Positions 41,541 through 60,814 of a DNA stretch of 64,000 nucleotides are shown here, in pieces (the first letter of the stretch is position 1; each line of letters begins with the position of its first letter). Source of the stretch: Pseudomonadota bacterium (GTDB lineage Bacteria > Pseudomonadota > Gammaproteobacteria > CALCKW01); the NCBI GenBank assembly GCA_039196715.1, contig JBCCUP010000020.1, forward strand, positions 1 to 64,000, read 5' to 3'. Below the pieces are notes generated by a model. The model ran no database searches and had not been told where the DNA came from. It saw nothing but the letters and a program-made list of their open reading frames with translations. Position numbers and translations under genes: made by a program.

Positions 41541-42487
41541 GCGGTCTCCGGAACCGGCGGAAAGTAGGCTCGCGTGATCGCGTCGCCGATGTCGAGCAGA
41601 TCACTCTGGACCGCGTCGAGAAAGCGGTGCCGTGCTAGGGCGTCGGCTGCCAGGGCGTCGGTGTCGACAGCGTCGATGCGCGCGTGCAGCGACGCCACGA
41701 GCGCGCGCGCGTCGTCGTGGTTGGGAAAGTGCTCGAGACAGCGGTCGAGCCGAACCAGACAAAACAGGCAGGCCGCCGGCAATTGCGCGTCCTTGAGCAG
41801 GAAGTCGAGGCAGCCGGTCGCGTTGACCGGTTGCCGCACGTGCCGGCGGTACATCTGCATGGCCGACACCGAGCGCAGCGCGGCCATCCAGTCGCGGTGG
41901 TCGTTCGAGGCAAAGTCGGTGTCACCGTCCGGTGTGGTCACACTCTTTGGCACATCGAGCACCCGGGTGGTCATGTCGGCGCGCTCGAGGTAGCAGGCCA
42001 TGCGGGTGAAGCGGTAGGCCTGATCGTGACGCAGGCTGCCGTGGATAGCCCCCGAGATTTCGAGCACCTGCCGTTCGATCGCCTCGAGGACCTGGCGGCG
42101 GTTGGCCAGCGTTACGCCCTGCTCGCAGGCGCTGCGCACGTAGCGCACCAGGGTGCTGATACGCTGGTAGAGCTGTTTCGGAAACACGTCGCGCGCACTG
42201 CGCAGGTTGTTGCGGATGGCAATCGACGCGTTGATGATCGAGCCCGGGTTACGCTCGTCGGCGACCAGAAAGGTGGTGACATCCTGGGCACTGGCCTCGG
42301 CGTAGTGCTTGAGGTAGAGCGCGTCGAGGCCAGTGATCGAGATCAGCGGCATCCAGCCGTCGTGCGACTGCACGTCGGGCAGGTCCATCAGCGAGCGGCT
42401 GTAGACGTTGATCAGCCGCGCGGAGTTTTCGATTCGCTCGAGGTAGCGACTCAGCCAGTAGACGTTCTCTGCAACGCGGGACAGCAT
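41537..42487 (-). CDS. Alpha-E domain protein
   Basis: This 316-residue all-helical protein begins MLSRVAENVYWLSRYLERIENSARLINVY, the highly conserved Alpha-E start, followed by NPGSIINASIAIRNNLRSARD and a Tyr/Arg-rich helix YRFTRMACYLERADMTTRVL. Its biochemical role is unknown. It always occurs with circularly permuted ATP-grasp and transglutaminase genes, as here, so it probably completes or positions the ligase. It lies in the middle of the operon. Confidence 0.92.
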   Translation of the reverse strand: MLSRVAENVYWLSRYLERIENSARLINVYSRSLMDLPDVQSHDGWMPLISITGLDALYLKHYAEASAQDVTTFLVADERNPGSIINASIAIRNNLRSARDVFPKQLYQRISTLVRYVRSACEQGVTLANRRQVLEAIERQVLEISGAIHGSLRHDQAYRFTRMACYLERADMTTRVLDVPKSVTTPDGDTDFASNDHRDWMAALRSVSAMQMYRRHVRQPVNATGCLDFLLKDAQLPAACLFCLVRLDRCLEHFPNHDDARALVASLHARIDAVDTDALAADALARHRFLDAVQSDLLDIGDAITRAYFPPVPETA

Positions 42488-42523
42488 GGGCTCAGACTCG
42501 TGCCGAGGTGGGTTCGGGTCGCG

Positions 42524-43993: not shown

Positions 43994-44003
43994 CAGGGGT
44001 CCC

Positions 44004-44897
44004 TTATTCCGAAACGAGCCTCGGTTGCCCAATACGGTTGACGTCCACTTCGACGGTCAGTGTATGCGCACCGCCACCATAGACTACTCCCTTGACCGGA
44101 ACAACATCGCTGTAGTCGCGTCCCCAACCCACCGTGACGTACTGCGAATCGGGGCGTTTGTTGTTGGTTGGATCGAAGTCGAACCAACCGGATTCGGTCG
44201 AAAACACCGAGAACCACGCGTGCGACGCGTCGGCGCCCTGCAGTTTCTCAACGCCGGGGGGCGGCAGGGTTTCGAGGTAGCCACTGACGTAGCGCGCCGG
44301 CACACCCTGGGTCCGCAGCACGGCGATGGCGAGGTGGGCAAAATCCTGGCACACCCCCTTGCGTGCGGCGACCACGGTCGAGAGCGGAGTCAACACGGTC
44401 GAGAAGCCCGATGTGTACTGGAAGGTGCCGTAGATGTGCTGCATCAGGCGTTCGGCATACGCCAAGACCGGTTCGTCGCCGATGGGCAACTCCTCGACAA
44501 TCGGTGCCGCGCTTGCGTCTTTCGGAATCGACGGAGACGGCAACAGGCAGTCGCGTGCCATCAGCGCATCGGGGTCGCGGCGCGACTGCAGCGTGGCGCC
44601 GTTGGCTGCGGCGGTCGATGATTGCGGCAGCGGGTCAAGCGCGTCGGCCGTTTCGATCAGCGAGTCGACAACGATGTCACATGCCGTGTGCGCCGTGTGC
44701 AGGTCGAACAGCGCGACCGTGTTGCCGAACTGGTCGACCCGGCTGTCAATGCGGTTAGGCCGTGGGCTCACCACAAGGTCGGTTTGCAGGCACCGTTGCT
44801 GCGGGGTGTCGCGCGGCAGCAGGCACACCTGGTTGATCGACTGGCTCGCCGACGCCGTGTAGTTGTAGAGGGTCCGGTGCCGAACGGTCAGTTTCAT
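44004..44897 (-). CDS. transglutaminase-like cysteine protease
   Basis: This is a 297-residue protein. A beta-sandwich N-terminal domain (1-85) begins MKLTVRHRTLYNYTASASQSIN. The transglutaminase core has Cys183 (GVCQDFAH), His226 (SHAWFSVF) and Asp242 (FDPTNN), a full triad. It has no signal peptide, so it acts in the cytoplasm. In this locus it probably cleaves a peptide or isopeptide product of the ATP-grasp ligases. It overlaps the ATP-grasp-Alpha-E fusion gene by 4 bp. Confidence 0.92.
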   Translation of the reverse strand: MKLTVRHRTLYNYTASASQSINQVCLLPRDTPQQRCLQTDLVVSPRPNRIDSRVDQFGNTVALFDLHTAHTACDIVVDSLIETADALDPLPQSSTAAANGATLQSRRDPDALMARDCLLPSPSIPKDASAAPIVEELPIGDEPVLAYAERLMQHIYGTFQYTSGFSTVLTPLSTVVAARKGVCQDFAHLAIAVLRTQGVPARYVSGYLETLPPPGVEKLQGADASHAWFSVFSTESGWFDFDPTNNKRPDSQYVTVGWGRDYSDVVPVKGVVYGGGAHTLTVEVDVNRIGQPRLVSE

Positions 44898-48560: not shown

Positions 48561-49799
48561 TCAGACCGTGGTCTTGACGGTGCCGTCGGCCACCCAGACG
48601 TCGAACAGTGCAAGCGCGGCGTCGGCGAAAGCGTCGTCGTTGATGTGGCAATCGAGTTCGGTGAACCCGATCGGCGCCGTCATGACCGTCCGCATCTCGT
48701 CGCAGAACGCGGCAAAGGCCTCGGGGTCATGCGCCTCTCCGCCGGGACGGTCCCATTCCTCGATGCCGCCGTTGGGCAGGATCACATGCGCGGGCGCGGC
48801 GGATACCGAGAGTCGCTTGGCAAGCTCGCGCGCAGTCTCACGCCGCTCGTCGGCGTTCAGGCCACTGGATTTGATCAAGCGGTTGTGGGCATGAAACGGC
48901 CTGTCGCGGTAGCGCTCGGGGATGTTTTGCCAACCGGCAAAGTCGATCAGGTCCAGGCAGCCCGGTGCGACGAGTTGCGGGATACCGGCACGTCCGGCGT
49001 TCAGCATGCGCTCGGTGCCGGCATTGACCACCGAGCCCGCCAGCAGGTTGCCGATTTCGGGCAGGGCGAAGTCCATCACGCAGGCAAAACCGCCCTGTTT
49101 GGCGATGCTCTCGTAGGCCATGCCGCCCATACCGGTCGCGTGGAAGATCGCGACCTCGAAGCCGCGCTGCTCCAGCGCGGGTTTGAGACGCTTCATGTAG
49201 CGAAGGCAGGAGGACCCGAGCGAGGTCATGCCCACGGTCGGGCGGTCCCCGACCGGGGGTTCCACCGCCCGTGCGGCACCGAGCACCGCACCGGCGGCCT
49301 GCGACAGCGAGGCCTTGCACACCGAGTTCAGCCCGTACAGACCGCCGGCCCAGAGGATCATCTGCACGTCTGCCGACAGGCGTTCCGGTGGAATCAGCGG
49401 TGAGAAGGACACGGTCGACACCACGTATTTCGGCACACCGAGGGGCAAGGCGTTGCAGATGTCGAGCGCGGCGTCGGTGCCCATGGTACCGCCGAGCACC
49501 ACCACGCCGTCGCAGCGCCCGGCCGCCTGGTGGTCGCGCGCGAGGGTGCTCGCACCACGCGCCATGATTTGCATCGCGGTGTTCTCGTCGCCGCTGTCGA
49601 TCGCGGCCCGAATCGAGCTGCCCGCGGCCTCGGCCACAGCGTGCTTCGAGATGTCCGTGGGGGTGGCGGGGTCGCCAAGCACGGAGATGTCCATGGTCAT
49701 CACACCGCCGCCCAGTGCGCGGATGCGCTCGGCCATGTAGTCAAGTTCGTCGTTCTTGGTGTCGTAGGTGCCGACGATCAGGATGGTTTTGTCTGCCAC
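48561..49799 (-). CDS. UPF0261/Tm-1-like ATP-binding domain protein
   Basis: This 412-residue protein begins KTILIVGTYDTKNDELDYMAERIRALG and has the family blocks GVVVLGGTMGTDAALDICNALPLGVPKYVVSTV, VGMTSLGSSCLRYMKRLKPALEQRG..VAIFHATGMGGMAYE and FALPEIGNLLAGSVVNAGTERMLNAG. The family includes the plant virus-resistance protein Tm-1; bacterial members are uncharacterised and often sit in catabolic clusters. It is downstream of the dehydrogenase gene by 18 bp, so cotranscription is likely. Confidence 0.9.
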   Translation of the reverse strand: MADKTILIVGTYDTKNDELDYMAERIRALGGGVMTMDISVLGDPATPTDISKHAVAEAAGSSIRAAIDSGDENTAMQIMARGASTLARDHQAAGRCDGVVVLGGTMGTDAALDICNALPLGVPKYVVSTVSFSPLIPPERLSADVQMILWAGGLYGLNSVCKASLSQAAGAVLGAARAVEPPVGDRPTVGMTSLGSSCLRYMKRLKPALEQRGFEVAIFHATGMGGMAYESIAKQGGFACVMDFALPEIGNLLAGSVVNAGTERMLNAGRAGIPQLVAPGCLDLIDFAGWQNIPERYRDRPFHAHNRLIKSSGLNADERRETARELAKRLSVSAAPAHVILPNGGIEEWDRPGGEAHDPEAFAAFCDEMRTVMTAPIGFTELDCHINDDAFADAALALFDVWVADGTVKTTV

Positions 49800-49817: not shown

Positions 49818-52307
49818 TCAAGCGCGCATGCGCGCGCCAGTGGGATCGTAGAACGGCTTGAGTTGAAGATCGATGGGCACGTGCTCGCCGGCGATCTGCA
49901 CGGTGCACGGTGCGTCGCCTAGCCAGACGTCCGTAACCCCCTGGTCTGCGTGCACGGCGGCGAGGCCGACCATGGCGTCGAGCCGGTGTCCCCAGTCGCC
50001 CGAGGTGATGTGTCCGATGCACTCGCCCGCGCGCCACACCGGCTCGTTGTGGATCAGGTAGGGTCCCCGCTCGGCGGTGAGCCCGGGCGCGCGCGCACAG
50101 ACCACCCGGTTCCGCGGTGCCCCGCCGTCCTCGGCGCGGTGTCGGTACAGCGCCTCGCGGCCGATGAAGTCGGCTTTGTCGAATCGAACGGTGAAGCCCA
50201 GCCCGGCCTCGAACGGGGTATCGTCCTCGCCGATGTCGTGGCCGAAGTGCAGGAAGCCTTTCTCGATCCGGCAGGCGTTGAGCGCGAACATGCCCATGTG
50301 TCGCAGGCCGTGGGCCTCGCCTGCAGCGCGCAGCGCGCTGTAGACGCCGCAGGTGAACTCGGTCGACAGCAGCAGCTCGAAACCGAGCTCGCCGACAAAG
50401 GACCGGCGAATGGCCCAGGCCCGCGCGTGTGCGATGTCGCATTCGGCAGCGGCGCCGAATGGCAGGTCGAGGTCGTCGTCCGAGAGCGATTGCAGCACCG
50501 CCCGTGCGGCCGGCCCGTGCACGCTCAGCAGGCCGTAGGCGGCAGTGGCATCGAACACCGCCACGCGCTGCCCGGGCGCGATGTGCTGGCGCAGCCAGGC
50601 GAGATCGCGTTGTTGGCTCGGGTGACCGGTGATGACGAGGAAGCGCTCGCTCGCGAGGCGAACGACCGTCAGGTCGGCTTCGATGCCGCCGCGCGCGTTC
50701 AAGAAGGGCGTGTACACGGAGGTGCCGACCGGCACATCGAGTTCCGCGCAGCATACGCGGTTCAGGGCGTGGACCGCATCCGCGCCCTGCACCTCGTACT
50801 TTGCGTACATCGACTGGTCGACCAGGACCGCGGCATCGCGGGCGGCCAGGCACTCGTCACGCACCGCGTTCGACCAGGGCTTCCAGCCGAGGCTCGGGGT
50901 GTCGGACCACGGCCGCGCCGGGCGGTGGTGGTCGAAATACATCGGCACTTCCCAACCCGCGCGTTCCGCCATGGCGGCACCGGCGTCCACGAGTTGTCTG
51001 TGCAGCGGCAGCGTGCGTATGCCCCGGGCTGAGTGGACCTGCCGCCCGGCCCAGGCGAGCCCGTAGTGAAACCCGACGCTCTCGGCTGCGCGCGTGCGGT
51101 TGTAGCGCGTGTTGCACTGGAACCGGTGGGCCCGGTTAGCCAGCAACGGTCCCATCGATCGCGAGGGGTGACCGTCAATCAGCCACTCGGCGAGTGTCAG
51201 GCCGACGCCGCCCGAGTTGAGGATGCCGTTGGAGTTCATGCCGGTGGCGACGAACACACCGCTGACCTCGGGCACGGGCCCGAGGTAGGGACGGCCGTCC
51301 GGCGTGAAACTCTCGGGTCCGTTGAAGAAGGTCCGGATGCCGAGGTCCGCGAGGGCCGGCATGCGTGCGAACATGCGCTCGAGTTCGGGTTCGACGTGCG
51401 CCATGTCGAACGGCAGCTCGTCGAATTCGAAGTCCGCCGGGATGCCGTCGACGGCCCAGGCCTTGCCGGCGGCTTCGAACCCGCCGATCAACAGCTTGCC
51501 GGCGTCTTCCTTCCAGTACGTGCGCTCTTCGCTGATGTTGAGAACGGGCTGGTCCGGGGCCAAGCCGGCCACCGGCTCGGTGACGATGTAGAAGTGTTCC
51601 GCGGCGTGCAGCGGCACCGTGATGCCGTGGGCCTTGGCAAACCGGTGCGACCACATGCCGGCCGCCAGCACCACCTGGTCGCAGCGAATCTCGCCGCGGT
51701 CGGTCACGACGCCGCGCACCCGGCCGCCGTCGATCTCGAGCCGCACGGCGGCGGTGTGTTCAGAGATCGTTGCGCCGTGCGCGCGCGCGCCCCGCGCCAG
51801 TGCGGTGGTCACGTCGAGGGGGTTGACCTGGCCGTTTGACGGCACGTGAAAGCCGGATACGACATCGTCGGTGCGAATGCCCGGCCAACGTTCCGCCACC
51901 TCCTCGGGTGACAGCAGGCGCGAGGGGATGCCCATGCGGGCCGCGTGGTCGTGGCTGCGTCGGAGTTGCTCGTGGCGGACGGCGCCGAGGGCGAGGTTGA
52001 TCGTGCCGTTTTGTCTGTACCCGGTCGCCTGGCCGGTTTCGACCTCGAGCTCGCGGAACAGCCGTGCTGTGTACTTGCCAAGCTCGGTCTGGGCCGAGCT
52101 GTCGCGCAGCTGCCCGACAATGCCGGCGGCGTGCCAGGTGGTGCCACTGCCGAGCTTTTTGCGCTCGAGCAGCATCGCCGACACGCCGCGTTGCGCGAGG
52201 TGGTAGAGGATGGACACGCCGATGATGCCGCCACCGACAATGACGACCGGCGCGTGGTCGGGGAGACGCGCGCGTGTGCGTGCGCGGACGGGTGGCGTCG
52301 TCGGCAT
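49818..52307 (-). CDS. FAD-dependent oxidoreductase with GcvT domains (dimethylglycine/sarcosine dehydrogenase type)
   Basis: This is an 829-residue protein. Residues about 18-380 form a DAO-type FAD domain with VVIVGGGIIGVSILYHLAQRGV and SGTTWHAAGIVGQLRDS, where the His is the usual flavin-linkage site in dimethylglycine dehydrogenase. An FAO middle domain and GcvT aminomethyltransferase domains (about 440-700 and 710-820) follow. It would oxidise a methylated amine such as dimethylglycine or sarcosine and pass the methyl to tetrahydrofolate. It diverges from the tctB operon and shares an intergenic region of 242 bp. The substrate is not certain. Confidence 0.9.
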   Translation of the reverse strand: MPTTPPVRARTRARLPDHAPVVIVGGGIIGVSILYHLAQRGVSAMLLERKKLGSGTTWHAAGIVGQLRDSSAQTELGKYTARLFRELEVETGQATGYRQNGTINLALGAVRHEQLRRSHDHAARMGIPSRLLSPEEVAERWPGIRTDDVVSGFHVPSNGQVNPLDVTTALARGARAHGATISEHTAAVRLEIDGGRVRGVVTDRGEIRCDQVVLAAGMWSHRFAKAHGITVPLHAAEHFYIVTEPVAGLAPDQPVLNISEERTYWKEDAGKLLIGGFEAAGKAWAVDGIPADFEFDELPFDMAHVEPELERMFARMPALADLGIRTFFNGPESFTPDGRPYLGPVPEVSGVFVATGMNSNGILNSGGVGLTLAEWLIDGHPSRSMGPLLANRAHRFQCNTRYNRTRAAESVGFHYGLAWAGRQVHSARGIRTLPLHRQLVDAGAAMAERAGWEVPMYFDHHRPARPWSDTPSLGWKPWSNAVRDECLAARDAAVLVDQSMYAKYEVQGADAVHALNRVCCAELDVPVGTSVYTPFLNARGGIEADLTVVRLASERFLVITGHPSQQRDLAWLRQHIAPGQRVAVFDATAAYGLLSVHGPAARAVLQSLSDDDLDLPFGAAAECDIAHARAWAIRRSFVGELGFELLLSTEFTCGVYSALRAAGEAHGLRHMGMFALNACRIEKGFLHFGHDIGEDDTPFEAGLGFTVRFDKADFIGREALYRHRAEDGGAPRNRVVCARAPGLTAERGPYLIHNEPVWRAGECIGHITSGDWGHRLDAMVGLAAVHADQGVTDVWLGDAPCTVQIAGEHVPIDLQLKPFYDPTGARMRA

Positions 52308-52380
52308 GGGCTGGGTCCTTGGGCGAATCCCGCGCTGGCATGGCGGTGTGTGCGCTACCTCGCGGCTTCAGTGCCAAAGC

Positions 52381-52437
52381 TTGACAGAGCCCGGTGCGGT
52401 TCACAATATAATGCACTTAGGGTGACAATAGTGAACC
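52381..52437 (+). promoter_or_regulatory. promoter and dyad operator of the tctBA-phospho-lyase operon
   Basis: A perfect TTGACA (52381-52386) and a perfect TATAAT (52407-52412) are separated by 20 bp, longer than optimal, which suggests an activated promoter. Overlapping the -10 are GGTTCAC (52398-52404) and GTGAACC (52431-52437), a perfect 7-bp inverted repeat with a 26-bp gap. The IclR gene at the operon's end is the candidate binder. Confidence 0.6.
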
Positions 52438-52549
52438 TGCCGGTGTTGCACAATGGCCCACCACGTGGGGTGCGCGAGGCGCAGCACGGGTGTCTGTGGC
52501 ACGATGCGCCGGTGCCCTACGCTGCGGCAACGCCGACCCGGGAGGGGCG

Positions 52550-53089
52550 ATGATCAAAGCACGCACGCTGCAAGACCTCTTCAGACGCTATCGCCGGCCA
52601 GGCGACCTGGTGTTTGGCTTGGCGTTTCTCGTCTTTGCCGTCTTCATCGTCTACTCGCTGCCCACCGAGGCCACGTTGTCCGGCCGCGGCAGCCTGTTTG
52701 CAAAACCGGCCTTCTATGTGCACGTGGCGGCCTACGCGATGCTGTTGTTTGCGGTGCTCCACGTGTTCAGCAGCCTGGTGTCCGAGGCACTCGAAGGCCG
52801 CTGGCGCGAGGTCTGGCTCTGGCTGCGCTCGATCGAATACGCCGTGTGGTTTCTCGCCTACGTTGTCATCGCGCCGGTGCTGGGTTACTTGCTTGCGACC
52901 CTGGTGTTCACGCTGAGCCTGACGGTCCGGCTCGGCTACCGCTCCCGCAGGGCACTGGCGCTGACCGCGTTCTTCTCGGTGTGTGTCGTGGTGGTGTTCA
53001 AGAGCTTTTTGCAGGTCAAGGTGCCCGGCGGGCAGCTCTACGAATACCTGCCATCGGCGCTGCGCACCCTCATGCTCACCTACTTCTGA
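52550..53089 (+). CDS. tctB: TctB-family tripartite tricarboxylate transporter small subunit
   Basis: This 179-residue protein has four hydrophobic segments (LVFGLAFLVFAVFIVYSL, FYVHVAAYAMLLFAVLHVF, LAYVVIAPVLGYLLATLVFTLSL and ALTAFFSVCVVVVF), the TctB topology. TctB and TctA form the membrane part of a TTT transporter, which needs a periplasmic TctC receptor; no tctC gene is in this window. GGAGGGG precedes the ATG at 52550. It is followed by tctA after 9 bp. Confidence 0.85.
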   Translation: MIKARTLQDLFRRYRRPGDLVFGLAFLVFAVFIVYSLPTEATLSGRGSLFAKPAFYVHVAAYAMLLFAVLHVFSSLVSEALEGRWREVWLWLRSIEYAVWFLAYVVIAPVLGYLLATLVFTLSLTVRLGYRSRRALALTAFFSVCVVVVFKSFLQVKVPGGQLYEYLPSALRTLMLTYF

Positions 53090-53098
53090 GGCCGATCG

Positions 53099-54622
53099 AT
53101 GGACGCGTTGCTCTCGGGGATCGAACTGCTTCTGCGCTGGGATGTGGCGCTGGCGCTGGTGGTCGGTTCGGTCGGTGGGGTCATCATTGGCGCGATCCCG
53201 GGTGTCGGCGCGGCTGTCGCCATCGCCATCCTGCTGCCCGCAACCTTCTCGATGGACCCCATCGTCGGTTTGACTCTGTTGCTCGGCATCTACGGTTCGT
53301 CGATGTACGGCGGGGCCATCCCTGCCATTCTCATCAACACGCCCGGCACTGCAGTCAACGCCCTGACCACCTACGACGGTTACCCGATGACCCGGCGCGG
53401 CGAGGCGCGGCGCGCGCTGTCGCTCGCTTATTCCGCGTCGTTTTGGGGGGGCTTGTTCGGCATTTCCTGTCTGATGTTTCTGTCGCCGCTGCTCGCGCTG
53501 GTGGCCCCGCACTTCGGCAGTCGCGAAATTTTCCTCGCCGCCCTGCTCGGGATCGTGCTGGTGGTGCTCGCGCACCGCGGGCAGGTCTTTGCCGCCGGCA
53601 TGCTGGCGGCCTTTGGCATGCTGCTCAACACGGTCGGCTTGAACCCCGTCACCTACCAGAAACAGATGACCTTCGGGCAGTCCTGGTTGACCGGCGGCTT
53701 CGACCTGATCGTCGTCGTGCTCGGCCTGTTTGCGCTGAGTCAGGCTTTCCTGTTGTTGGTCGAGGACGATCAGACGCCCAAGCCGCAACGCGTCGAAGGC
53801 AGCTTGTTCAGCGGGCTGAAGGACATCTGGTTGTTTCGGCGCATCGCCACCGTGGGCTCGAGTTTCGGCGTCATGATGGGGATGATCCCTGGCGTCGGCG
53901 AGTTCACCTCGCAATTCCTCTCCTACACCTATGCACGGCGCACCTCGAAGACCCCCGAGGCCTTCGGCGACGGCGCGCCGGAGGGGTTGGTCGCCTCCGA
54001 GGCCGCCAACAACTCGGTGCCACCGGCTGCCTTGATTCCCTTGCTCGCGCTTGGCATTCCAGGGGAGGCGCTGACCGCGATGATGTTGTCGGTCTTCTAC
54101 GTGCACAACGTCATCCCGGGGCCACAGCTGTTTGAGACTCAGCTCGATTTCGTCTACGCGCTCTACGTGTCGCTGATGATCCTGAACGTGATCGTCGTGC
54201 TCTTTCTGCTCTCGGCCACCAACCTCCTGACCAAGATCATCCAGATCCCGACCCGTTACCTCGGCATGATGATCCTGACGCTCGCGTTCATCGGGGTCTA
54301 CTCGATACGCAACTCGGTGATCGATTGCATGGTGGCGTCGAGTTTCGGCTTTCTCGGCCTGATTCTCCGCCGGCTCAACCTGCCAACCGTGCCGATCGTT
54401 CTCGGCATGGTGCTCGGTGGGATCATGGAAGCCAAGCTGCGCACGGCGATGATGCGGGTCAGTTCGCCGCTCGATTTCGTCAACCGCCCGATCGCCGCCC
54501 TGCTCTTTCTGGCGATCGTCTACGTCCTGGTGATGCACGTGGTGACGCTGCGGCGTGAGCACCGGCAGCGGCTGGCCAAGGCCGATCAGGACACCGACAT
54601 CCACGACACCCAGTTCAGGTGA
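53099..54622 (+). CDS. tctA: TctA-family transporter large subunit
   Basis: This 507-residue protein has about twelve membrane segments and the TctA signatures GGVIIGAIPGVGAAVAIAILLPATF, YGSSMYGGAIPAILINTPGTAVNALTTYDGYPM and GMIPGVGEFTSQFLSYTYARR..., with PPAALIPLLALGIPGEALTAMML. TctA is the substrate-translocating subunit of TTT transporters, which take up carboxylates and some amino acids. Its stop overlaps the aldehyde dehydrogenase start by 4 bp, so uptake and catabolism are coupled. Confidence 0.93.
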   Translation: MDALLSGIELLLRWDVALALVVGSVGGVIIGAIPGVGAAVAIAILLPATFSMDPIVGLTLLLGIYGSSMYGGAIPAILINTPGTAVNALTTYDGYPMTRRGEARRALSLAYSASFWGGLFGISCLMFLSPLLALVAPHFGSREIFLAALLGIVLVVLAHRGQVFAAGMLAAFGMLLNTVGLNPVTYQKQMTFGQSWLTGGFDLIVVVLGLFALSQAFLLLVEDDQTPKPQRVEGSLFSGLKDIWLFRRIATVGSSFGVMMGMIPGVGEFTSQFLSYTYARRTSKTPEAFGDGAPEGLVASEAANNSVPPAALIPLLALGIPGEALTAMMLSVFYVHNVIPGPQLFETQLDFVYALYVSLMILNVIVVLFLLSATNLLTKIIQIPTRYLGMMILTLAFIGVYSIRNSVIDCMVASSFGFLGLILRRLNLPTVPIVLGMVLGGIMEAKLRTAMMRVSSPLDFVNRPIAALLFLAIVYVLVMHVVTLRREHRQRLAKADQDTDIHDTQFR

Positions 54623-56112
54623 ACGCAGTGAAGCAAACCGACATCGACGCCTTGCGTGTCGAACCCGTGGCCCCGCGCGGGCTCTTGATCGACGGCCAGA
54701 TCGGGCCCAGCCAGGACGGTGGCGTGCACGAGGTGCTATCGCCGATCGACGGTCGCGTTCTGACGACCACCGCAGCAGGCACCGCCGGGGACGCGGCGCG
54801 GGCCGTTGCCGCCGCGCGGGCGGCCTTCGACGACGGCCGTTGGCGCAACCTGCCGCCGGCGGCCCGCAAGCGGATCATGCTGCGTTGGGCCGATCTGATC
54901 GAGGCCGAGGCGCTCGCCCTGACCGTGCTCGGAGTGCGCGACAACGGCACCGAGATCGGCATGGCGATCAAGGCCGAGGCCGGTTCGGCGGTGGCGACGC
55001 TGCGCTACTACGCCGAGGCAATCGACAAGCTGTACGGTGAGATCGCGCCGACCGATCCGGCTTTTCTCGGCCTGGTCCACCGCGAGCCTGTCGGCGTGGT
55101 CGCCGCCATCATCCCGTGGAATTTCCCGCTGATGATCGGTGCCTGGAAGCTCGGCCCGGCCTTGGCCGCCGGCAACTCGGTGGTGCTGAAACCCGCCGAG
55201 ACCGCGTCGCTGAGCGTGTTGCGCCTCGCGGAACTGGCACTGGAGGCCGGCGTGCCCCCGGGTGTGTTGAACGTGGTCACCGGTACGGGCGAAGTGGTGG
55301 GCGACACGCTGGCGCGCTCGATGGACGTCGACGTTGTGGTGTTCACCGGCTCGGGCGCCACGGGCCGTCGGCTGCTCACCGCGGCGGCTGAAAGCAACCT
55401 CAAGCGCTGTTACCTCGAACTCGGCGGCAAGTCGGCCAACGTGGTGTTCAACGACGCACGTGATCTCGATGACGCGGCACGCGTCAGCGCCGCCGGGATC
55501 TTTCGAAACGCCGGGCAGGTCTGCGTGGCCGGTTCCCGGCTGCTGGTGCAACGCGACATCCACGACGACTTTGTCGCTGCGCTTGGCGCGGCGAGCGCGG
55601 CCATGACCGTGGGCGACCCGCTCGACCTCGGCAGCCAGATCGGCGCGATCAACAACGCCGCCCAGCTCGAGCAAAACCTCGCGCGCGTCGAGACCGCCGT
55701 GCACGAGGGGGGCACGCTCTACCAGGGCGGTGACCGCTTGCACGCGGCGTCCGGCGGCTACTACATGGCACCGACCATCCTCACGGACGTCGCCGAGCAC
55801 CACAGTGTCGCCCAGCAGGAGGTGTTTGGCCCGGTGCTCGCCGTGACGCCGTTCGATACCGAGGACGAGGCAATTGCACTGGCCAACAGCACGGTTTACG
55901 GCCTGGCTGGTGGCGTCTGGACCGCCGACCTCGGGCGCGCCCACCGCCTGGTGCGCGCGATGAAAACCGGTGTGGTCCACGTCAACACATACGGTGGGCC
56001 CGACGTGACGGTGCCGCTGGGGGGCGTCAAGCAGTCGGGCAACGGACACGACAAGTCACTGCACGCCTTCGACAAGTTCGTCGACCTCAAGACCGCGTGG
56101 ATCAAACTGTGA
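54619..56112 (+). CDS. NAD(P)-dependent aldehyde dehydrogenase
   Basis: This is a 497-residue protein with the class 1/2-like ALDH motifs: VVAAIIPWNFPLMIGAWKLGPALAAGNSVVLKPAE, VFTGSGATGR, LELGGKSANVVF (Glu267) and FRNAGQVCVAGS (Cys302 nucleophile). It is closest in style to gamma-glutamyl-gamma-aminobutyraldehyde or betaine aldehyde dehydrogenases, and a general amino-aldehyde substrate fits. In the operon it would oxidise the aldehyde released by the phospho-lyase. The GTG at 54619 overlaps the tctA stop; a second GTG at 54628 is possible. Confidence 0.92.
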   Translation: MNAVKQTDIDALRVEPVAPRGLLIDGQIGPSQDGGVHEVLSPIDGRVLTTTAAGTAGDAARAVAAARAAFDDGRWRNLPPAARKRIMLRWADLIEAEALALTVLGVRDNGTEIGMAIKAEAGSAVATLRYYAEAIDKLYGEIAPTDPAFLGLVHREPVGVVAAIIPWNFPLMIGAWKLGPALAAGNSVVLKPAETASLSVLRLAELALEAGVPPGVLNVVTGTGEVVGDTLARSMDVDVVVFTGSGATGRRLLTAAAESNLKRCYLELGGKSANVVFNDARDLDDAARVSAAGIFRNAGQVCVAGSRLLVQRDIHDDFVAALGAASAAMTVGDPLDLGSQIGAINNAAQLEQNLARVETAVHEGGTLYQGGDRLHAASGGYYMAPTILTDVAEHHSVAQQEVFGPVLAVTPFDTEDEAIALANSTVYGLAGGVWTADLGRAHRLVRAMKTGVVHVNTYGGPDVTVPLGGVKQSGNGHDKSLHAFDKFVDLKTAWIKL

Positions 56113-57407
56113 CACGCGACACCGCTGCGCTGCTCGCCGACCGTGCACGGCTGCTCGGCCCGCGGGTCAGCACCTTCTACGACAATCCGGTGCACCTCGT
56201 GCGCGGCGAGGGCGTGTGGGTATGGGATGCCGACGGACGCCGCTACCTCGATTGCTACAACAACGTGCCGCACGTCGGCCACTGCCACCCGGCGGTGGTC
56301 GAGGCCATCGCGCGGCAGGCGGCGACGTTGAACACCCACACGCGCTACCTGCACGACGGCATCCTGCGCTACGTCGAGAAACTCACCGCCACCTTTGATG
56401 CGCGTCTCGGCACCGCGATCCTGACCTGCACCGGCTCGGAGGCCAACGACATCGCCCTGCGTATGGCCGAGTCGGTCAACGGCAAGCGCGGCGTCATTGC
56501 GACCGACCACACCTACCACGGCAACACGACCGCGGTGGCGCAACTCTCAATGACCAACCGACCCGAGACCGGGGTGGGTGACCACGTCGCCCACGTGCCT
56601 GCGCCGGACAGCTACCGGCCGCTCGGCGGCGAGGCGGGCCCGGCCCACGCGGCGGCCTTTGCGGCCGCGGTGAAACAGCAGATCGACGCACTCAACGCAA
56701 CCGAGCACGGGTTTTCGGCGCTGATCGTCTGCCCGTACTTCTGCAACGAGGGCTTTCCGGATCTGTGCGACGGCTTCCTCGCACCGGCGGTCGAACACGT
56801 GCACGAGGCGGGTGGTCTCGTGATCGCCGACGAGGTCCAACCGGGCTTCGGCCGCCTCGGCAGCCACTTCTGGGGTCACCAGAAAGCCGGCATCGCACCC
56901 GACATCGTGACCCTCGGCAAACCGATGGGCAACGGACACCCGGTGGCCGGTGTGGTCACCACGATCGACACCATGACCGCGTTTCGCGAGTCCGTTCGGT
57001 ACTTCAACACCTTTGGCGGCAACCCCGTGTCCTGCGCCGCCGCTGAGGCGGTGCTCGACGTGCTCGAGGCGGAGGGTCTGGTGGCGCAAGCGCACGAGGT
57101 GGGCAACTACGCGCGGGCGGGGTTGCGGGCGCTGGCCGACACGCATGCCTGCATCGGCGACGTGCGCGGCGCCGGCCTCTTCTTCGGCGCCGAGATGGTG
57201 TTGGACAGGTCCGCGAAGACCCCGGCGACCGCGTTCACCGACCGCGTCGCCAACGCCATGCGACAGGAGGGCGTGCTGCTCAACAAACTGGGGATCCACT
57301 ACAACACGCTCAAGATCCGGCCGAACTTGCAGTTCACACGCGCCGACGCAGACGTGCTGCTCGACACCCTCGACCGGGTGCTATCGGCTGTCGAGCTGCG
57401 CCCGTGA
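56109..57407 (+). CDS. class III PLP enzyme, probable phospho-lyase (AGXT2L/ETNPPL type)
   Basis: This 432-residue PLP protein has Lys271 in VTLGKPMGNGHP and Asp241 in ADEVQPGFGR. It matches, by memory, human ethanolamine-phosphate phospho-lyase through DCYNNVPHVGHCHPAVVEAI, LNTHTRYLHDGILRYVEKL, HFWGHQKAG..PDIVTLGKPMGNGHPVAGVVTT, YFNTFGGNPVSCAAAEAVLD and a KTPATAF stretch. Those enzymes remove phosphate and ammonia from O-phosphoethanolamine or 5-phosphohydroxylysine to give an aldehyde. A plain aminotransferase is the alternative. The GTG at 56109 overlaps the dehydrogenase stop (GTGA); another GTG at 56097 exists. Confidence 0.87.
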   Translation: MTRDTAALLADRARLLGPRVSTFYDNPVHLVRGEGVWVWDADGRRYLDCYNNVPHVGHCHPAVVEAIARQAATLNTHTRYLHDGILRYVEKLTATFDARLGTAILTCTGSEANDIALRMAESVNGKRGVIATDHTYHGNTTAVAQLSMTNRPETGVGDHVAHVPAPDSYRPLGGEAGPAHAAAFAAAVKQQIDALNATEHGFSALIVCPYFCNEGFPDLCDGFLAPAVEHVHEAGGLVIADEVQPGFGRLGSHFWGHQKAGIAPDIVTLGKPMGNGHPVAGVVTTIDTMTAFRESVRYFNTFGGNPVSCAAAEAVLDVLEAEGLVAQAHEVGNYARAGLRALADTHACIGDVRGAGLFFGAEMVLDRSAKTPATAFTDRVANAMRQEGVLLNKLGIHYNTLKIRPNLQFTRADADVLLDTLDRVLSAVELRP

Positions 57408-58348
57408 GCCTCGACACCGCGCACCGCGCGTTGACACAGTGGCCGCTGTCCGTCGCCGACCTGCGGCTGTTCGCGCAGCGGGAAAACGCGGTTTTCAGAG
57501 TACGGACAGACACCGGCACGTGTTTCGCGTTGCGCGTGCACCGCCAGGGCTACCAACGCACGGCGGCGTTGGCGTCGGAACTCCACTGGATGCAACACCT
57601 GCACGGCGCAGGCTTGCCCGTTCCGGTCCCGGTGCCGAGCGACGACGGACGCCTGCTGCGGCACCAGGACGGGTTCGCCGTGGACGTGCTGACCTGGCTC
57701 GACGGAGAGCCGCTCGGTCAAAGCGGCACACCGCTCGCCCACGCGGACCGAGAGGGGTGCTTCTTCCGCCTCGGACAGACGCTCGCCCGCGTGCACGCGG
57801 CGTCGGACGCGTGGGCCTTGCCGGGTGGCTTCGAACGCAGCGCCTGGGACCTCGACGGGCTGATCGGCGACGCGCCGCTCTGGGGGCCCTACCTCGACAG
57901 CCCGGCGCTCACCGCTGCGCAACGCGGCACGCTTGCCCGGGTGCGAGACGCCCTGCGGGCGGCGTTGGACGGATCGACGCTCGACTACGGGCTGATCCAC
58001 GCCGACGCGGTGCCCGAGAACGTGTTGCTCACACCCGACGGCGTGGCGCTGATCGACTTTGACGACAGCGGCTTCGGCTACCGTCTGTTCGATGTCGCGA
58101 CCGCCCTGCTCAAACACCGGGCCGAACCGGACTACCCGCGGCTGGAGGCCGCGTTGATCGCGGGTTACCGCGCGCTGCGTCCGATCGACACCGCGCACCT
58201 GGCGGCGTTCAGCGTGATGCGCGCGCAGACGTACATCGGCTGGATCCGGGCGCGCATCGACGAACCGGGTGCAGCCGTGCGCCAGCAACGCGTCATTGAC
58301 ACCGCGCTGTCGCTCGCGGTCGACTACCTCGAGCGCGCGCCCGCATGA
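57404..58348 (+). CDS. aminoglycoside-phosphotransferase-fold small-molecule kinase
   Basis: This 314-residue protein has the APH/HSK2 kinase layout: an N-terminal lobe with FRVRTDTGTCFALRVHRQGY, then GLIHADAVPENVLL (base Asp201, Asn206) and LIDFDDSGFGYRLFD (metal Asp219). The fold includes hydroxylysine kinase, choline/ethanolamine kinases and homoserine kinase II. It overlaps the phospho-lyase gene by 4 bp, and in mammals the same two families form the hydroxylysine pathway. It probably phosphorylates the hydroxyl of an imported amino alcohol to supply the lyase. Confidence 0.85.
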   Translation: MSLDTAHRALTQWPLSVADLRLFAQRENAVFRVRTDTGTCFALRVHRQGYQRTAALASELHWMQHLHGAGLPVPVPVPSDDGRLLRHQDGFAVDVLTWLDGEPLGQSGTPLAHADREGCFFRLGQTLARVHAASDAWALPGGFERSAWDLDGLIGDAPLWGPYLDSPALTAAQRGTLARVRDALRAALDGSTLDYGLIHADAVPENVLLTPDGVALIDFDDSGFGYRLFDVATALLKHRAEPDYPRLEAALIAGYRALRPIDTAHLAAFSVMRAQTYIGWIRARIDEPGAAVRQQRVIDTALSLAVDYLERAPA

Positions 58349-59109
58349 AAACCGTCGACAAGGCCATGACCGTGCTGGCCCAATTCACCACCGAGCGCAC
58401 CGAAGTCGGACTGACGGAGCTCGCACGCCTCGCGGACCTCGACAAAGCGGCAACGCGACGCTTGCTGGTTGCACTGATCAAGCACGGGTACGTCGAGCAG
58501 TCGACCGTGACGCGCGGCTACCGTCTCGGCCCGGGCTTTCTCGCGCTCGCACGCGTGCGCGAGGCCACTGTGCCACTCAAGCGCGCCGCGCAGGAGACGA
58601 CCGACTGGTTGACCCGGACCGTCGACGAGACCGCGCACATCAGCGTGCCGCTGCCGGATCACATGGCAACCCTCGCGTACACCCTGCCGAGCCGGGGCAA
58701 CATCATCAACATCGTGCCGTCGCAGCCCCTGCCGTTTCACGCGACAGCGTCGGGCATCGCCTACCTTGCGGCCTGCGATGCCGCTCGCCTCGAGGCGGCC
58801 TTGCGCACCCGACGCGCACGGATCACACCGCACACGCCGACATCCAAGGCGGCGACGCGCGCTGCCGTCGACGCCGCGACGTCGCACGGGTATGCGCATT
58901 GCCAGAGCACCTTCGAGTTGGGCGTGTCGAGCTTTGCAATGGCCTTCTTTACCGGCGACACCGCACCGGCGGGCACGGTGTCCGTTGCGTTGCCCGAGCA
59001 GCGGTTGGACGGGCCACGTCGCAAGCTGCTGTTGGCCGCCTTGCGCGACGCGGTCGAGCGCATCGAATGCGCGCTGACCGGTCAGCGACCGTCGGTGTCC
59101 CGTGCCTGA
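58345..59109 (+). CDS. IclR-family transcriptional regulator
   Basis: This 254-residue protein has a winged HTH (about 1-60: KAMTVLAQFTTERTEVGLTELARLADLDKAATRRLLVALIKHGYV) and an effector domain (about 75-245: HISVPLPDHMATLAYTLPSRGNII..., PFHATASGIAYLAAC). It overlaps the kinase stop by 4 bp (ATGA) and the next gene by 8 bp, so it is embedded in the operon it likely controls. The dyad near 52398-52437 is its candidate operator. Confidence 0.92.
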   Translation: MKTVDKAMTVLAQFTTERTEVGLTELARLADLDKAATRRLLVALIKHGYVEQSTVTRGYRLGPGFLALARVREATVPLKRAAQETTDWLTRTVDETAHISVPLPDHMATLAYTLPSRGNIINIVPSQPLPFHATASGIAYLAACDAARLEAALRTRRARITPHTPTSKAATRAAVDAATSHGYAHCQSTFELGVSSFAMAFFTGDTAPAGTVSVALPEQRLDGPRRKLLLAALRDAVERIECALTGQRPSVSRA

Positions 59110-60814
59110 GTTGCGGTTTTGGTCACTGGTGACCGCCCTCGTTGCGCTCATGCCGCTGTGCGTGCACGCCGCCGGGCCAGTGCAGGTGTTGTACAACGCC
59201 AGCGTCTACACCGCCGATGCCGAACAGCGGGTTGTGGAGGCGATCGCCTTTGACGCGGACGGCGTCATCCGCGCGGTCGGCGACAGCGACTCGTTGCGCG
59301 CCCGTTACGGTGGCGGCATCGACCTCGACGGCGCCACCGTGTTGCCGGGTTTTCACGATGTGCACCTGCACGCCGTCGAGGCCGGGGTCAACAGCGTGTT
59401 CTGCCCCGTGTCCCAGTTTGGAAGTGGCTCGCGTTACCGCACAGAGCTACGACGGTGCGCAGCCGACTGGGCGGCGGACGATTGGGTCATCGCCGCGGGT
59501 GTCAACATGGCGGCCTTGCTTCGGACGGTATCCGACCCGCGCGCGTTGGCGGATGCCGTGGTCGCCGACAAGCCACTGTTGGTGATTGATGACCTCGGCC
59601 ACGGTGCCTGGGCCAACTCGCGCGCGCTCGCGGCCGTGGGCTTCGACCGCATCACGGGCTCGCCGCCCGGCGGTCTGGTGCTGCGCGATGCGCGCGGGCA
59701 GCCCAACGGCGTGGTGCTCGAGTCTGCGGCGCAAACGCTGATTGACGCGGCGCTGCCGCAGGCTGAGTGGCTCGACACAACCACCGAGCTGTTTGCCGAC
59801 GCGCTGGCCGAGCTCGCACGCCACGGCATCACCTCCGTCAGCGACGCCGGCGGCTACTGGCCACGTGGCCACCACCGCGTGTGGCAACGCACCGAGGCGG
59901 CCGGAGGTCTGACCGTGCGGGCGAGCAACGCGCTCTACCTTTACCCGGATCGTGACCCGGACGCCCAGATTGCCCGCCTCAAGCAGCTCAAGACGGCCGG
60001 TGAGTCAGGCTTGCACCGCTTCGACCAGGTGAAGATCTACGTCGACGGTATCCTCTCGCAAACCACCGGACGCGTGGCCTCGCCCTATGCAGTCGACCTC
60101 GGGCTGTCGTTGCCGGGCGCGTCGGGCTTTGACTACTTTGACACGGCCGTGTTGCGGCGTTACGTGCGCGACTTGTCAGCGCTGGGGTTCAGCCTGCATT
60201 TTCACGCGACGGGCGAACTTGGCGTGCGCGCCGCGCTCGACGCCATCGCGGCGGCTGCAGACGGGTCGGCCCCGCACCGTGTGACCCACGTCTACCGGGT
60301 GCACCCGGCAGACCGTGACCGGTTTGCCGAGCTCGGCGTGTTTGCCGACTTCCAGATCGCGCCGAGCGCGCAATCGGGCAGCTACCAACGCTACATCGCG
60401 TCCCTGCTCGGCGTGCGGGCACCCGACCTCATGCCGCTGACTGCGTTGCACCGTGCCAAGGCGCCGATCACCCTCAGCAGCGACTGGGACGCCGACGTGC
60501 TCTCGCCGCTGGTCAAGCTCGCCACCGTGCTCGAGCAGCACCCGTCGCTGTCGCGCGCGGACGTGCTCGACATGATGACAATCAACGGGGCCAAGTTACT
60601 CCGCCAGGCCGACAAGACCGGCTCCCTTGAAGTCGGGAAGAGGGCGGACATCGCGATCATCGACGGCGATCTGCTGGACGCACAGCCACGCGACATCGCC
60701 GCGTTGGGCATCGTCGCGACCCTGTTGAGTGGCCGGGCGGTGTACCTCCGCGAGCCCGCGTGGCCACTTGACGACGCCGACAGCTGGCATCCCCGCGTTC
60801 AGATCGGCAATTGA
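59102..60814 (+). CDS. exported amidohydrolase (YtcJ-like, amidohydrolase_3)
   Basis: This is a 570-residue protein. A signal peptide (1-23, WSLVTALVALMPLCVHA) is followed by the amidohydrolase barrel: TVLPGFHDVHLHAVEAG (metal HxH), FSLHFHATGELGVRAALDAI, HRVTHVYRVHP and ITLSSDWDADVLSPL, ending MMTINGAKLLRQADKTGSLEVGKRADIAIID. It is predicted to hydrolyse an amide or related bond in the periplasm, and could release the amino alcohol that the pathway imports; this is inference. The GTG start at 59102 overlaps the IclR stop by 8 bp, which supports cotranscription. Confidence 0.88.
   Translation: MPELRFWSLVTALVALMPLCVHAAGPVQVLYNASVYTADAEQRVVEAIAFDADGVIRAVGDSDSLRARYGGGIDLDGATVLPGFHDVHLHAVEAGVNSVFCPVSQFGSGSRYRTELRRCAADWAADDWVIAAGVNMAALLRTVSDPRALADAVVADKPLLVIDDLGHGAWANSRALAAVGFDRITGSPPGGLVLRDARGQPNGVVLESAAQTLIDAALPQAEWLDTTTELFADALAELARHGITSVSDAGGYWPRGHHRVWQRTEAAGGLTVRASNALYLYPDRDPDAQIARLKQLKTAGESGLHRFDQVKIYVDGILSQTTGRVASPYAVDLGLSLPGASGFDYFDTAVLRRYVRDLSALGFSLHFHATGELGVRAALDAIAAAADGSAPHRVTHVYRVHPADRDRFAELGVFADFQIAPSAQSGSYQRYIASLLGVRAPDLMPLTALHRAKAPITLSSDWDADVLSPLVKLATVLEQHPSLSRADVLDMMTINGAKLLRQADKTGSLEVGKRADIAIIDGDLLDAQPRDIAALGIVATLLSGRAVYLREPAWPLDDADSWHPRVQIGN

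What the first reader, a model, noticed from the sequence alone, without database searches (positions are those of the whole stretch)
52550..59109. Candidate kinase/phospho-lyase/dehydrogenase catabolic operon for an amino alcohol
A TTT transporter (tctB, tctA), an aldehyde dehydrogenase, a class III PLP enzyme of the AGXT2L/ETNPPL type, an APH-fold kinase and an IclR regulator form one operon with 4-bp overlaps throughout. The expected route is: import, phosphorylation of the hydroxyl, elimination of phosphate and ammonia to an aldehyde, then oxidation. In mammals the same kinase and lyase families degrade hydroxylysine, and the lyase family also acts on phosphoethanolamine. A bacterial operon with its own uptake system and regulator, and without a TctC receptor, appears undescribed as a unit.
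Basis: partly seen in the sequence, partly recalled or inferred. Interest (0 to 1): 0.72.

Follow-up and report, generated by a model that had tools for sequence, protein, structure and literature searches.

The report
Phospho-route for aromatic amino alcohols
A set of genes shared by many soil and marine bacteria probably lets them eat octopamine- or adrenaline-like amines by adding a phosphate and then eliminating it together with ammonia; the enzyme types are well supported, the exact food molecule is inferred and untested.

Summary
The six genes are real and at the stated place. The PLP enzyme groups with phospho-lyases (PDB 5g4i 376 bits, human ETNPPL 369; next family 190), not with omega-transaminases. 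The kinase keeps its catalytic motifs. The window holds part of a conserved gene set. Relatives add a second class III aminotransferase, a Tm-1-like (UPF0261) protein, a HAD hydrolase and TctC; rhizobia carry an APC permease instead of Tct. Here the Tm-1-like gene and an N-demethylase-like flavoprotein lie divergently beside the operon; TctC, second aminotransferase and HAD lie on another contig, so 'no TctC' is not a property of the system. New clue to the substrate: linkage with homoprotocatechuate (hpa) genes. hpa-type genes lie in 21 of 80 loci. In 196 sampled Rhodobacterales, HpaE occurs in 20 of 23 genomes with the window-type lyase against 39 of 149 without lyase, and within 15.1 kb of it in 6 of those 20. 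This genome also encodes HpaB, HpaD and HpaE. I propose beta-hydroxyphenethylamines (octopamine, noradrenaline, N-methylated forms) as substrates, degraded to hydroxyphenylacetates. Ethanolamine and hydroxylysine remain possible. No activity is shown; the statistics are not corrected for ancestry.

The parts
52550..53089 (+). tctB, small membrane subunit of a tripartite tricarboxylate transporter (ATG at 52550)
   Evidence: PF07331 37.5 bits; TctB match in 15 of 84 loci
53099..54622 (+). tctA, large membrane subunit
   Evidence: PF01970 430.6 bits; TctA match in 19 of 84 loci
54619..56112 (+). aldehyde dehydrogenase (PuuC/KauB-like), proposed to oxidise the arylacetaldehyde
   Evidence: PF00171 532 bits; best NCBIfam PuuC 529 bits, below its 850 cut-off; best PDB match KauB 487 bits; match at 55% identity or more in 40 of 84 loci
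56109..57407 (+). class III PLP phospho-lyase of the AGXT2L/ETNPPL type (longest ORF from 56097); PLP lysine in LGKPMGNG (motif role recalled)
   Evidence: phmmer 375.6 bits to 5g4i ('phospholyase'), 369.3 to human-type ETNPPL 6tor, next 190; tree
57404..58348 (+). APH-fold small-molecule kinase; HADAVPEN at residue 199 and IDFDD at 217
   Evidence: PF01636 117.7 bits; motifs; kinase match in 77 of 84 loci
58345..59109 (+). IclR-family regulator (PcaR/PcaU/PobR-like, below cut-off)
   Evidence: PF01614, PF09339; TIGR02431 100.5 bits against a cut-off of 284.75; 61% identical IclR follows the kinase in the congener G003
49818..52307 (-). DAO + GCV_T flavoprotein of the dimethylglycine/sarcosine dehydrogenase type, proposed N-demethylase, divergent
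   Evidence: PF01266 249, PF01571 231 bits; 65-69% identical copies in loci L019, L040, L043, L052, which also hold the Tm-1-like gene
48561..49799 (-). Tm-1-like / UPF0261 protein, role unknown, conserved member of the set
   Evidence: PF06792 and PF23189; NF002676 618.7 bits, above its 556 cut-off; match in 40 of 84 loci
52308..52549 (.). divergent regulatory region; blocks 52376-52391, 52404-52417, 52421-52437 are largely conserved in the congener G003
   Evidence: one promoter-like site, not clearly above shuffles
59102..60814 (+). amidohydrolase (Amidohydro_3) with a signal-peptide-like start (by eye); possibly co-transcribed, doubtful member
   Evidence: PF07969 250.7 bits; the only match in the 84 relatives' loci is 25% identical, in L035

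Best explanation
The operon is part of a conserved catabolic set for beta-hydroxyphenethylamines (octopamine, noradrenaline; synephrine or adrenaline after N-demethylation). Proposed steps: (1) uptake by TctABC, with TctC from contig C12. (2) If the amine is N-methylated, the divergent DAO/GcvT flavoprotein removes the methyl group. (3) The APH-fold kinase phosphorylates the side-chain hydroxyl. (4) The class III PLP phospho-lyase eliminates phosphate and, after hydrolysis of the enamine, ammonia, giving 4-hydroxy- or 3,4-dihydroxyphenylacetaldehyde. (5) The aldehyde dehydrogenase makes 4-hydroxyphenylacetate or homoprotocatechuate. (6) HpaBC, HpaD and HpaE elsewhere in the genome open and degrade the ring. 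The second aminotransferase (on C12) may feed non-hydroxylated amines such as tyramine or dopamine into the same aldehydes. IclR regulates. Shown here: gene content, family membership, conservation, linkage with hpa, presence of hpa genes in this genome. Inferred: every reaction and the substrate.
For: Lyase membership: bits and tree. Kinase motifs. hpa-type genes inside the locus: 21 of 80 (gene lists), in Rhizobium/Ensifer (downstream, same strand), Mesorhizobium (downstream, opposite strand), Rhodobacterales (several arrangements), Granulosicoccus/Granulosicoccaceae (L036, L053) and Marinobacterium (L083); at least 10 changes on the lyase tree. Of five annotated plasmid regions with the set, two show hpa genes (A. 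tumefaciens, R. leguminosarum) and three do not. 196 Rhodobacterales drawn by the tool: HpaE above cut-off in 20 of 23 with the window-type lyase, 2 of 7 with the second lyase clade, 2 of 17 low scorers not placed, 39 of 149 without lyase (Fisher p 3e-8, first against last). HpaE within 15.1 kb of the lyase in 6 of those 20 (binomial chance 7e-9 for 4-Mb genomes taken as independent, 4e-4 if counted as three events). A phenol 2-monooxygenase (NF006144, 836 bits, cut-off 560) directly follows the kinase in Phaeobacter porticola, with copies in L048, L125, L129. This genome: HpaB-1 522 (cut-off 480), HpaD 415 (321), HpaE 752 (638).
Against: No activity is shown. Co-occurrence is not corrected for ancestry; the tree-based independent-pairs test had no power (7 pairs, median p 1). 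hmgA, a control marker, is also enriched (23 of 23 against 108 of 149, p 0.0014), so part of the signal is general richness in aromatic catabolism; hmgA lies within 15.1 kb in 1 of 23. In the 80-locus list the second lyase clade also has hpaD or HpaE in 13 of its 22 genomes, so the contrast between clades rests on the Rhodobacterales sample. Four loci with the fuller set (L040, L043, L044, L060) come from genomes with neither HpaD nor HpaE. hpa genes are on other contigs than the operon in this genome. In Paracoccus, Rahnella, Pseudomonas and Sinorhizobium relatives (49-57% identity) kinase and lyase sit near ABC transporter and SDR genes and no hpa genes are annotated within 7 kb, so the enzyme pair has other substrates too. 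TctABC systems usually carry carboxylates (recalled).
Confidence: 0.52

Rival explanations
1. Hydroxylysine-type catabolism, as in mammals: kinase, 5-phosphohydroxylysine lyase, aldehyde dehydrogenase to 2-aminoadipate, with the second aminotransferase making 2-oxoadipate. Uptake by TctABC or an APC amino-acid permease.
For: Same enzyme families as HYKK/PHYKPL (recalled; Veiga-da-Cunha 2012 seen as reference 31 of PMC8154272); a second class III aminotransferase in 39 of 84 loci and an APC permease in 18 of 84.
Against: hpa genes and, in a few loci, a phenol monooxygenase are the neighbours found. The second aminotransferase scores best with PRK07481 (757-758 bits); the 2-aminoadipate transaminase model is not among the best 25 of its 69 matches. 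I did not search for glutarate or 2-oxoadipate genes.
Confidence: 0.12
2. Ethanolamine or 1-amino-2-propanol degradation through the phosphate ester to acetaldehyde or propionaldehyde, then oxidation.
For: The second-best PDB match is ethanolamine-phosphate phospho-lyase (6tor), and the best (5g4i) is recalled to act on phosphoethanolamine too; the classical kinase/phospho-lyase/dehydrogenase pathway is recalled from 1970s enzymology.
Against: It explains neither the hpa linkage, nor the second aminotransferase, nor the phenol hydroxylase. The aldehyde dehydrogenase scores higher with PuuC than with acetaldehyde dehydrogenase ExaC (529 against 366 bits, both below cut-off).
Confidence: 0.14
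3. Only the second aminotransferase and the dehydrogenase serve aromatic amines (tyramine, dopamine); kinase and lyase handle an unrelated amino alcohol and share the cluster by convenience.
For: An aromatic aldehyde-forming transaminase would also explain the hpa linkage; loci without T, D or M have hpa-type genes in only 2 of 40 cases.
Against: Those 2 are L053 (lyase at the contig end, so T, D and M may be cut off) and L083, where lyase and kinase sit with hpa genes. Of six basal lyases, L079, L080, L083 and L087 come from genomes with HpaE, L084 and L088 do not. The kinase is the most constant partner of the lyase.
Confidence: 0.15
4. The PLP enzyme is an ordinary omega-transaminase and the kinase acts on something else.
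For: Class III fold; database products say 'aspartate aminotransferase family protein'.
Against: Bit-score gap 376/369 against 190 and tree placement with ETNPPL and 5g4i.
Confidence: 0.05

Closest known systems
Ethanolamine-phosphate phospho-lyase ETNPPL/AGXT2L1 (PDB 6tor) and the phospholyase of PDB 5g4i (recalled as Arthrobacter A1RDF1)
   Same: Sequence family, PLP lysine context, expected 1,2-elimination of phosphate
   Different: A clade of its own, here mostly from Alpha- and Gammaproteobacteria, linked with hpa genes; Arg301 in 55 of 57 window-type rows (one gene counted twice), Gly in 15 of 22 of the second clade, Met in 5g4i, Glu in ETNPPL
Hydroxylysine kinase plus PHYKPL of mammals (recalled; reference seen)
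   Same: APH-fold kinase followed by AGXT2L-type lyase
   Different: Here in a bacterial operon with transporter, dehydrogenase and regulator; probable aromatic substrate
3,4-dihydroxyphenylacetic acid catabolon of Pseudomonas putida U for tyramine and dopamine (title seen in a reference list)
   Same: Biogenic amine funnelled into homoprotocatechuate
   Different: There the amine is oxidised (recalled); here phosphorylation and elimination would remove a side-chain hydroxyl and the amine together
PbfA, (R)-1-hydroxy-2-aminoethylphosphonate ammonia-lyase (PMC8154272, passages seen)
   Same: Class III PLP lyase acting on a beta-hydroxyamine with a linked catabolic route
   Different: PbfA releases water, without prior phosphorylation; its model scores 202 bits on the window enzyme against a cut-off of 525
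Octopamine dehydratase EC 4.2.1.87 and synephrine dehydratase EC 4.2.1.88 (recalled; neither name occurs in the 30 papers listed of 53)
   Same: Overall conversion of octopamine or synephrine to 4-hydroxyphenylacetaldehyde and amine
   Different: Described as hydro-lyases without assigned genes (recalled); the present proposal is ATP-dependent, in two steps

Membership tests
AGXT2L / phospho-lyase subfamily of class III PLP enzymes | Closer in sequence to known phospho-lyases than to aminotransferases | tested here: met
   375.6 (5g4i) and 369.3 (6tor) bits against 190 for the next PDB family; a 13-row group with both holds it at 90/94 support, a 15-row group at 99/97; the second aminotransferase and own-genome paralogues L004-L008 fall outside, own_L003 (= L095) inside the larger group
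AGXT2L / phospho-lyase subfamily of class III PLP enzymes | PLP-binding lysine and aspartate kept (motif roles recalled) | tested here: met
   LGKPMGNG from residue 273, ADEVQ from 244, GSEAND from 113
AGXT2L / phospho-lyase subfamily of class III PLP enzymes | Releases phosphate and ammonia from a phospho-amino alcohol | not testable with these tools
   needs enzyme assay
APH-fold small-molecule kinases | HxDxxxxN and DxD motifs intact (motifs recalled) | tested here: met
   HADAVPEN at 199, IDFDD at 217; PF01636 117.7 bits
Tripartite tricarboxylate transporter | TctA, TctB and a TctC receptor | tested here: met
   tctB, tctA in the window; tctC at L093:12643-13629 on contig C12, PF03401 57.7 bits, 77% identical over 287 residues to the cluster tctC of L010; that they work together is inferred
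Homoprotocatechuate (hpa) linked catabolic unit | Ring-cleavage genes of the 4-hydroxyphenylacetate pathway in the same genome | tested here: met
   HpaB-1, HpaD above cut-off, HpaE above cut-off, on contigs C23 and C108
Homoprotocatechuate (hpa) linked catabolic unit | hpa genes adjacent to this operon in this genome | tested here: not met
   hpa genes lie on C23 and C108, the operon on C20
Ethanolamine (eut) utilisation | EutBC ammonia-lyase and microcompartment genes | not tested
   no search made

The most novel reading that the evidence does not exclude
Bacteria remove the side-chain hydroxyl and amine of octopamine, noradrenaline and (after demethylation) synephrine or adrenaline by an ATP-dependent kinase plus PLP phospho-lyase, which would be the molecular identity of the 'octopamine/synephrine dehydratase' activities that (from recall) lack genes, and would give UPF0261/Tm-1-like proteins a pathway context.
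Probability: 0.33. Interest if true: 0.8.

Novelty: new variant of a known kind. Interest (0 to 1): 0.6.

Why it matters
If true, it assigns genes to the bacterial breakdown of octopamine- and adrenaline-like signalling amines, shows that the AGXT2L phospho-lyase family reaches aromatic substrates, and gives a simple marker (kinase plus lyase beside hpa) to find organisms that consume such amines in soil, rhizosphere and sea. It makes old reports of octopamine/synephrine dehydratase (recalled) testable with named genes. It would also correct database labels such as 'aspartate aminotransferase family protein', 'homoserine kinase' and 'phosphotransferase' given to these genes.

Tried and rejected
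Amidohydrolase 59102-60814 as part of the unit: only one distant match (25%) in the 84 relatives' loci, so left as doubtful. Palindrome GGTTCAC-N26-GTGAACC (52398-52404, 52431-52437) as IclR operator: the left arm is not conserved in G003, and a 7-base repeat of that kind is about what chance gives (my estimate), so rejected; only the linear footprint is kept. Rfam: no match in the window. Promoter and terminator scans: 1 site against a mean of 0.4 in shuffles and 8 against 4.9, not informative. Independent-pairs test of cluster against hpa: no power. The AU test is void: I left own_L003 out of the named group although it is the same protein as L095. VOC-type hpaD as sole hpa marker: it misses genomes with HpaE but no such hpaD (G002, L083 and others), so HpaE was used as well, run only on the genomes without hpaD and on the window's genus. 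Structure prediction and fold searches were not run: sequence already placed the enzyme, and a monomer model would not show a shared active site. The papers sought (10.1002/cbic.201600482; PMC3293546) are not held. Papers of which I saw passages only: PMC8154272, PMC10816480, PMC5897657, PMC12718150, PMC5028733, PMC2991359. Rows dropped: loci L089-L092 and own-genome loci were left out of the counts, 15 of 94 rows were left out of the two clade sets, L088, L094, L095 and L101-L104 were left out of the tree, and 17 of 47 lyases were not placed because no locus was fetched. L040 and L082 lie in one genome, so the 80 loci stand for 79 genomes.


Full report
WHAT IS THERE. The window (52550-59109, +) encodes TctB, TctA, an aldehyde dehydrogenase, a class III PLP enzyme, an APH-fold kinase and an IclR regulator. 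Four of five junctions overlap by 4 bp (the lyase one if GTG 56109 is its start); tctB and tctA are 9 bp apart. An amidohydrolase ORF (59102-60814) overlaps iclR by 8 bp. On the other strand, divergent from tctB, lie a DAO/GcvT flavoprotein (49818-52307) and a Tm-1-like UPF0261 protein (48561-49799).

THE PLP ENZYME. Against all PDB sequences the two best matches are 5g4i, deposited as a phospholyase (375.6 bits), and 6tor, ethanolamine-phosphate phospho-lyase (369.3); the third family, dialkylglycine decarboxylase, has 190. In a tree with own-genome class III paralogues and the second aminotransferase it groups with these two. The nearest NCBIfam models, PRK06148 and PRK06149, are called 'hypothetical protein' and 'aminotransferase' and score below cut-off.

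THE KINASE. PF01636 117.7 bits, motifs HADAVPEN and IDFDD, best PDB match 6ef6 at 120 bits, deposited as 'aminoglycoside phosphotransferase'. Its substrate cannot be read from sequence.

THE CONSERVED SET. At the thresholds they contain a match to: lyase 84, kinase 77, Tm-1-like 40, dehydrogenase 40, second aminotransferase 39, IclR 33, HAD 26, TctC 20, TctA 19, APC permease 18, TctB 15, amidohydrolase 1. Some loci are cut by contig ends. Annotated examples: Ruegeria pomeroyi megaplasmid, Agrobacterium and Rhizobium plasmids, Shinella, Phaeobacter porticola. The rhizobial loci carry an APC permease where many Rhodobacterales loci carry TctCBA.

THE OTHER HALF IN THIS GENOME. On contig C12 (L093) lie the second aminotransferase (67% identical to the Ruegeria one), HAD hydrolase, another IclR and, divergently, TctC. 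The only Tm-1-like match in the genome is the one in the window, 67% identical. So the set is split and the transporter is probably complete. In the congener G002 (whose contig C2 has the length and the lyase of L019's contig) the order is second aminotransferase, flavoprotein, Tm-1-like, a 725-residue Oxidored_FMN/Pyr_redox protein, lyase, kinase, with TctC and TctB divergent. In congener G003 the divergent region is followed by a 103-bp relic of the tctA end (70.9% identity, E 2e-8) and then lyase, kinase and IclR, so tctB, most of tctA and the dehydrogenase appear to have been lost from that place.

LINK WITH HPA GENES. In 21 of 80 loci at least one gene of the homoprotocatechuate/4-hydroxyphenylacetate pathway (hpaB, C, D, E, F, H, I, or the FAH and gabD genes of those clusters, at set identities) lies in the fetched stretch: 19 of 40 loci that also have T, D or M, and 2 of 40 without (gene lists). 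Arrangements differ: downstream on the same strand (Rhizobium, Ensifer), downstream on the opposite strand (Mesorhizobium), between dehydrogenase and lyase (L036), upstream (L041, L047), downstream of the kinase (L053). The lyase tree needs at least 10 changes. In the listing of families shared by five or more loci, what recurs beside the set itself is hpa genes, a chromosomal context of a second lyase clade (one family looks like nicotinate phosphoribosyltransferase, by eye), reading-frame shadows and a few unlabelled small groups. VOC-type hpaD occurs in the genomes of 53 of 80 loci; HpaE, searched only where hpaD was missing and in the window's genus, adds nine loci, together 62 of 80. The second lyase clade shares in this: 13 of its 22 loci have hpaD or HpaE in the genome. 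These 80 are the best matches to our query, not a fair sample.

A FAIRER SAMPLE. 196 Rhodobacterales genomes drawn by the tool: lyase in 47, HpaE in 63, both in 24. After placing 30 of the 47 lyases on a quick tree, the window-type group has HpaE in 20 of 23, the second clade in 2 of 7, the 17 unplaced low scorers in 2, and genomes without lyase in 39 of 149. HpaE lies within 15.1 kb of the lyase in 6 of the 20 (3.3, 7.0, 9.2, 11.4, 12.7, 15.1 kb). Control with homogentisate dioxygenase: 23 of 23 against 108 of 149 (p 0.0014), within 15.1 kb in 1 of 23. So these genomes are somewhat richer in aromatic pathways in general, but the hpa effect is much larger and shows in position as well. The tests are not corrected for ancestry. 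In 229 gammaproteobacterial genomes the lyase (E 1e-130 or better) occurs in 5, three of them in the window's genus.

MORE AROMATIC HINTS. In Phaeobacter porticola the gene after the kinase is a phenol 2-monooxygenase (PF07976; NF006144 836 bits, cut-off 560), with copies at L048, L125 and L129 (L125 is identical over the part seen, so perhaps the same or a near species). The window's own genome has HpaB-1, HpaD and HpaE above their cut-offs, with HpaR- and HpaC-like neighbours of HpaB (28-31% identity).

READING. A vicinal amino alcohol that ends in homoprotocatechuate is a beta-hydroxyphenethylamine. Kinase and lyase would turn octopamine or noradrenaline into the arylacetaldehyde, the dehydrogenase into the arylacetate, and Hpa enzymes would do the rest. 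The flavoprotein would demethylate synephrine or adrenaline first. All reactions are inferred. The main weaknesses: four fuller sets (L040, L043, L044, L060) come from genomes without HpaD or HpaE, the co-occurrence is partly shared with hmgA and with the second lyase clade, and related kinase-lyase pairs in Sinorhizobium, Rahnella, Pseudomonas and Paracoccus sit near ABC transporter and SDR genes instead.

KNOWN OR NEW. Each enzyme family is known. The classical kinase/phospho-lyase/dehydrogenase route for 1-aminopropan-2-ol and the orphan octopamine and synephrine dehydratases are recalled, not read. The tyramine/dopamine catabolon of Pseudomonas putida U was seen only as a title in a reference list. 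My ten searches of the open-access library listed no paper that by title or abstract start describes this gene set, within capped listings. I rate it a new variant of a known kind.

Noticed in passing
L094:9925-13008 (contig C11 of the window's genome): A 1027-residue fusion of APH kinase, peptidase M23 and class III phospho-lyase-like domains (PRK06148, 1477 bits, cut-off 1128): a second kinase-lyase system in the same genome, of unknown substrate.
   Followed up: partly
L095:3154-9368 (contig C9 of the window's genome): Two further DAO/GcvT flavoproteins (39% and 32% identical to the window's) followed by a lyase-like class III enzyme about 38% identical; possibly a pathway for another N-methylated amine.
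   Followed up: no
window 48561-49799 and 40 of 84 relatives' loci: UPF0261/Tm-1-like protein as a recurrent member of this set; no TBST partner domain was seen among the few genes I scanned. Its role is unknown (PMC5028733 describes family history, passages seen).
   Followed up: partly
L029, L042, L055, L062-L065, L067-L071, L073-L078, L081, L082, L085, L086: A second lyase clade in Rhodobacterales: a kinase match in the locus in 21 of 22, no T, D, M or hpa genes in the locus, and, for many of them, shared chromosomal neighbours: a sister system, perhaps with another substrate.
   Followed up: partly
L104:829-931 (congener G003): Relic of the tctA 3' end between the conserved promoter region and the lyase, a sign of loss of tctB, tctA and the dehydrogenase in a close relative.
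   Followed up: yes
window 41537-47476, minus strand: Neighbouring genes for circularly permuted ATP-grasp, Alpha-E and transglutaminase-like proteins; ATP-grasp and Alpha-E occur once as a fusion and once as two genes.
   Followed up: no
L138, L139, L140: Kinase plus lyase (49-51% identity) near ABC transporter genes, an SDR and a GntR regulator on Sinorhizobium, Rahnella and Pseudomonas plasmids: another probable catabolic unit of the same enzyme pair.
   Followed up: no
window 59102-60814: Amidohydrolase with signal-peptide-like start (by eye) overlapping iclR; could release an amine from an amide outside the cytoplasm, but is not conserved.
   Followed up: partly
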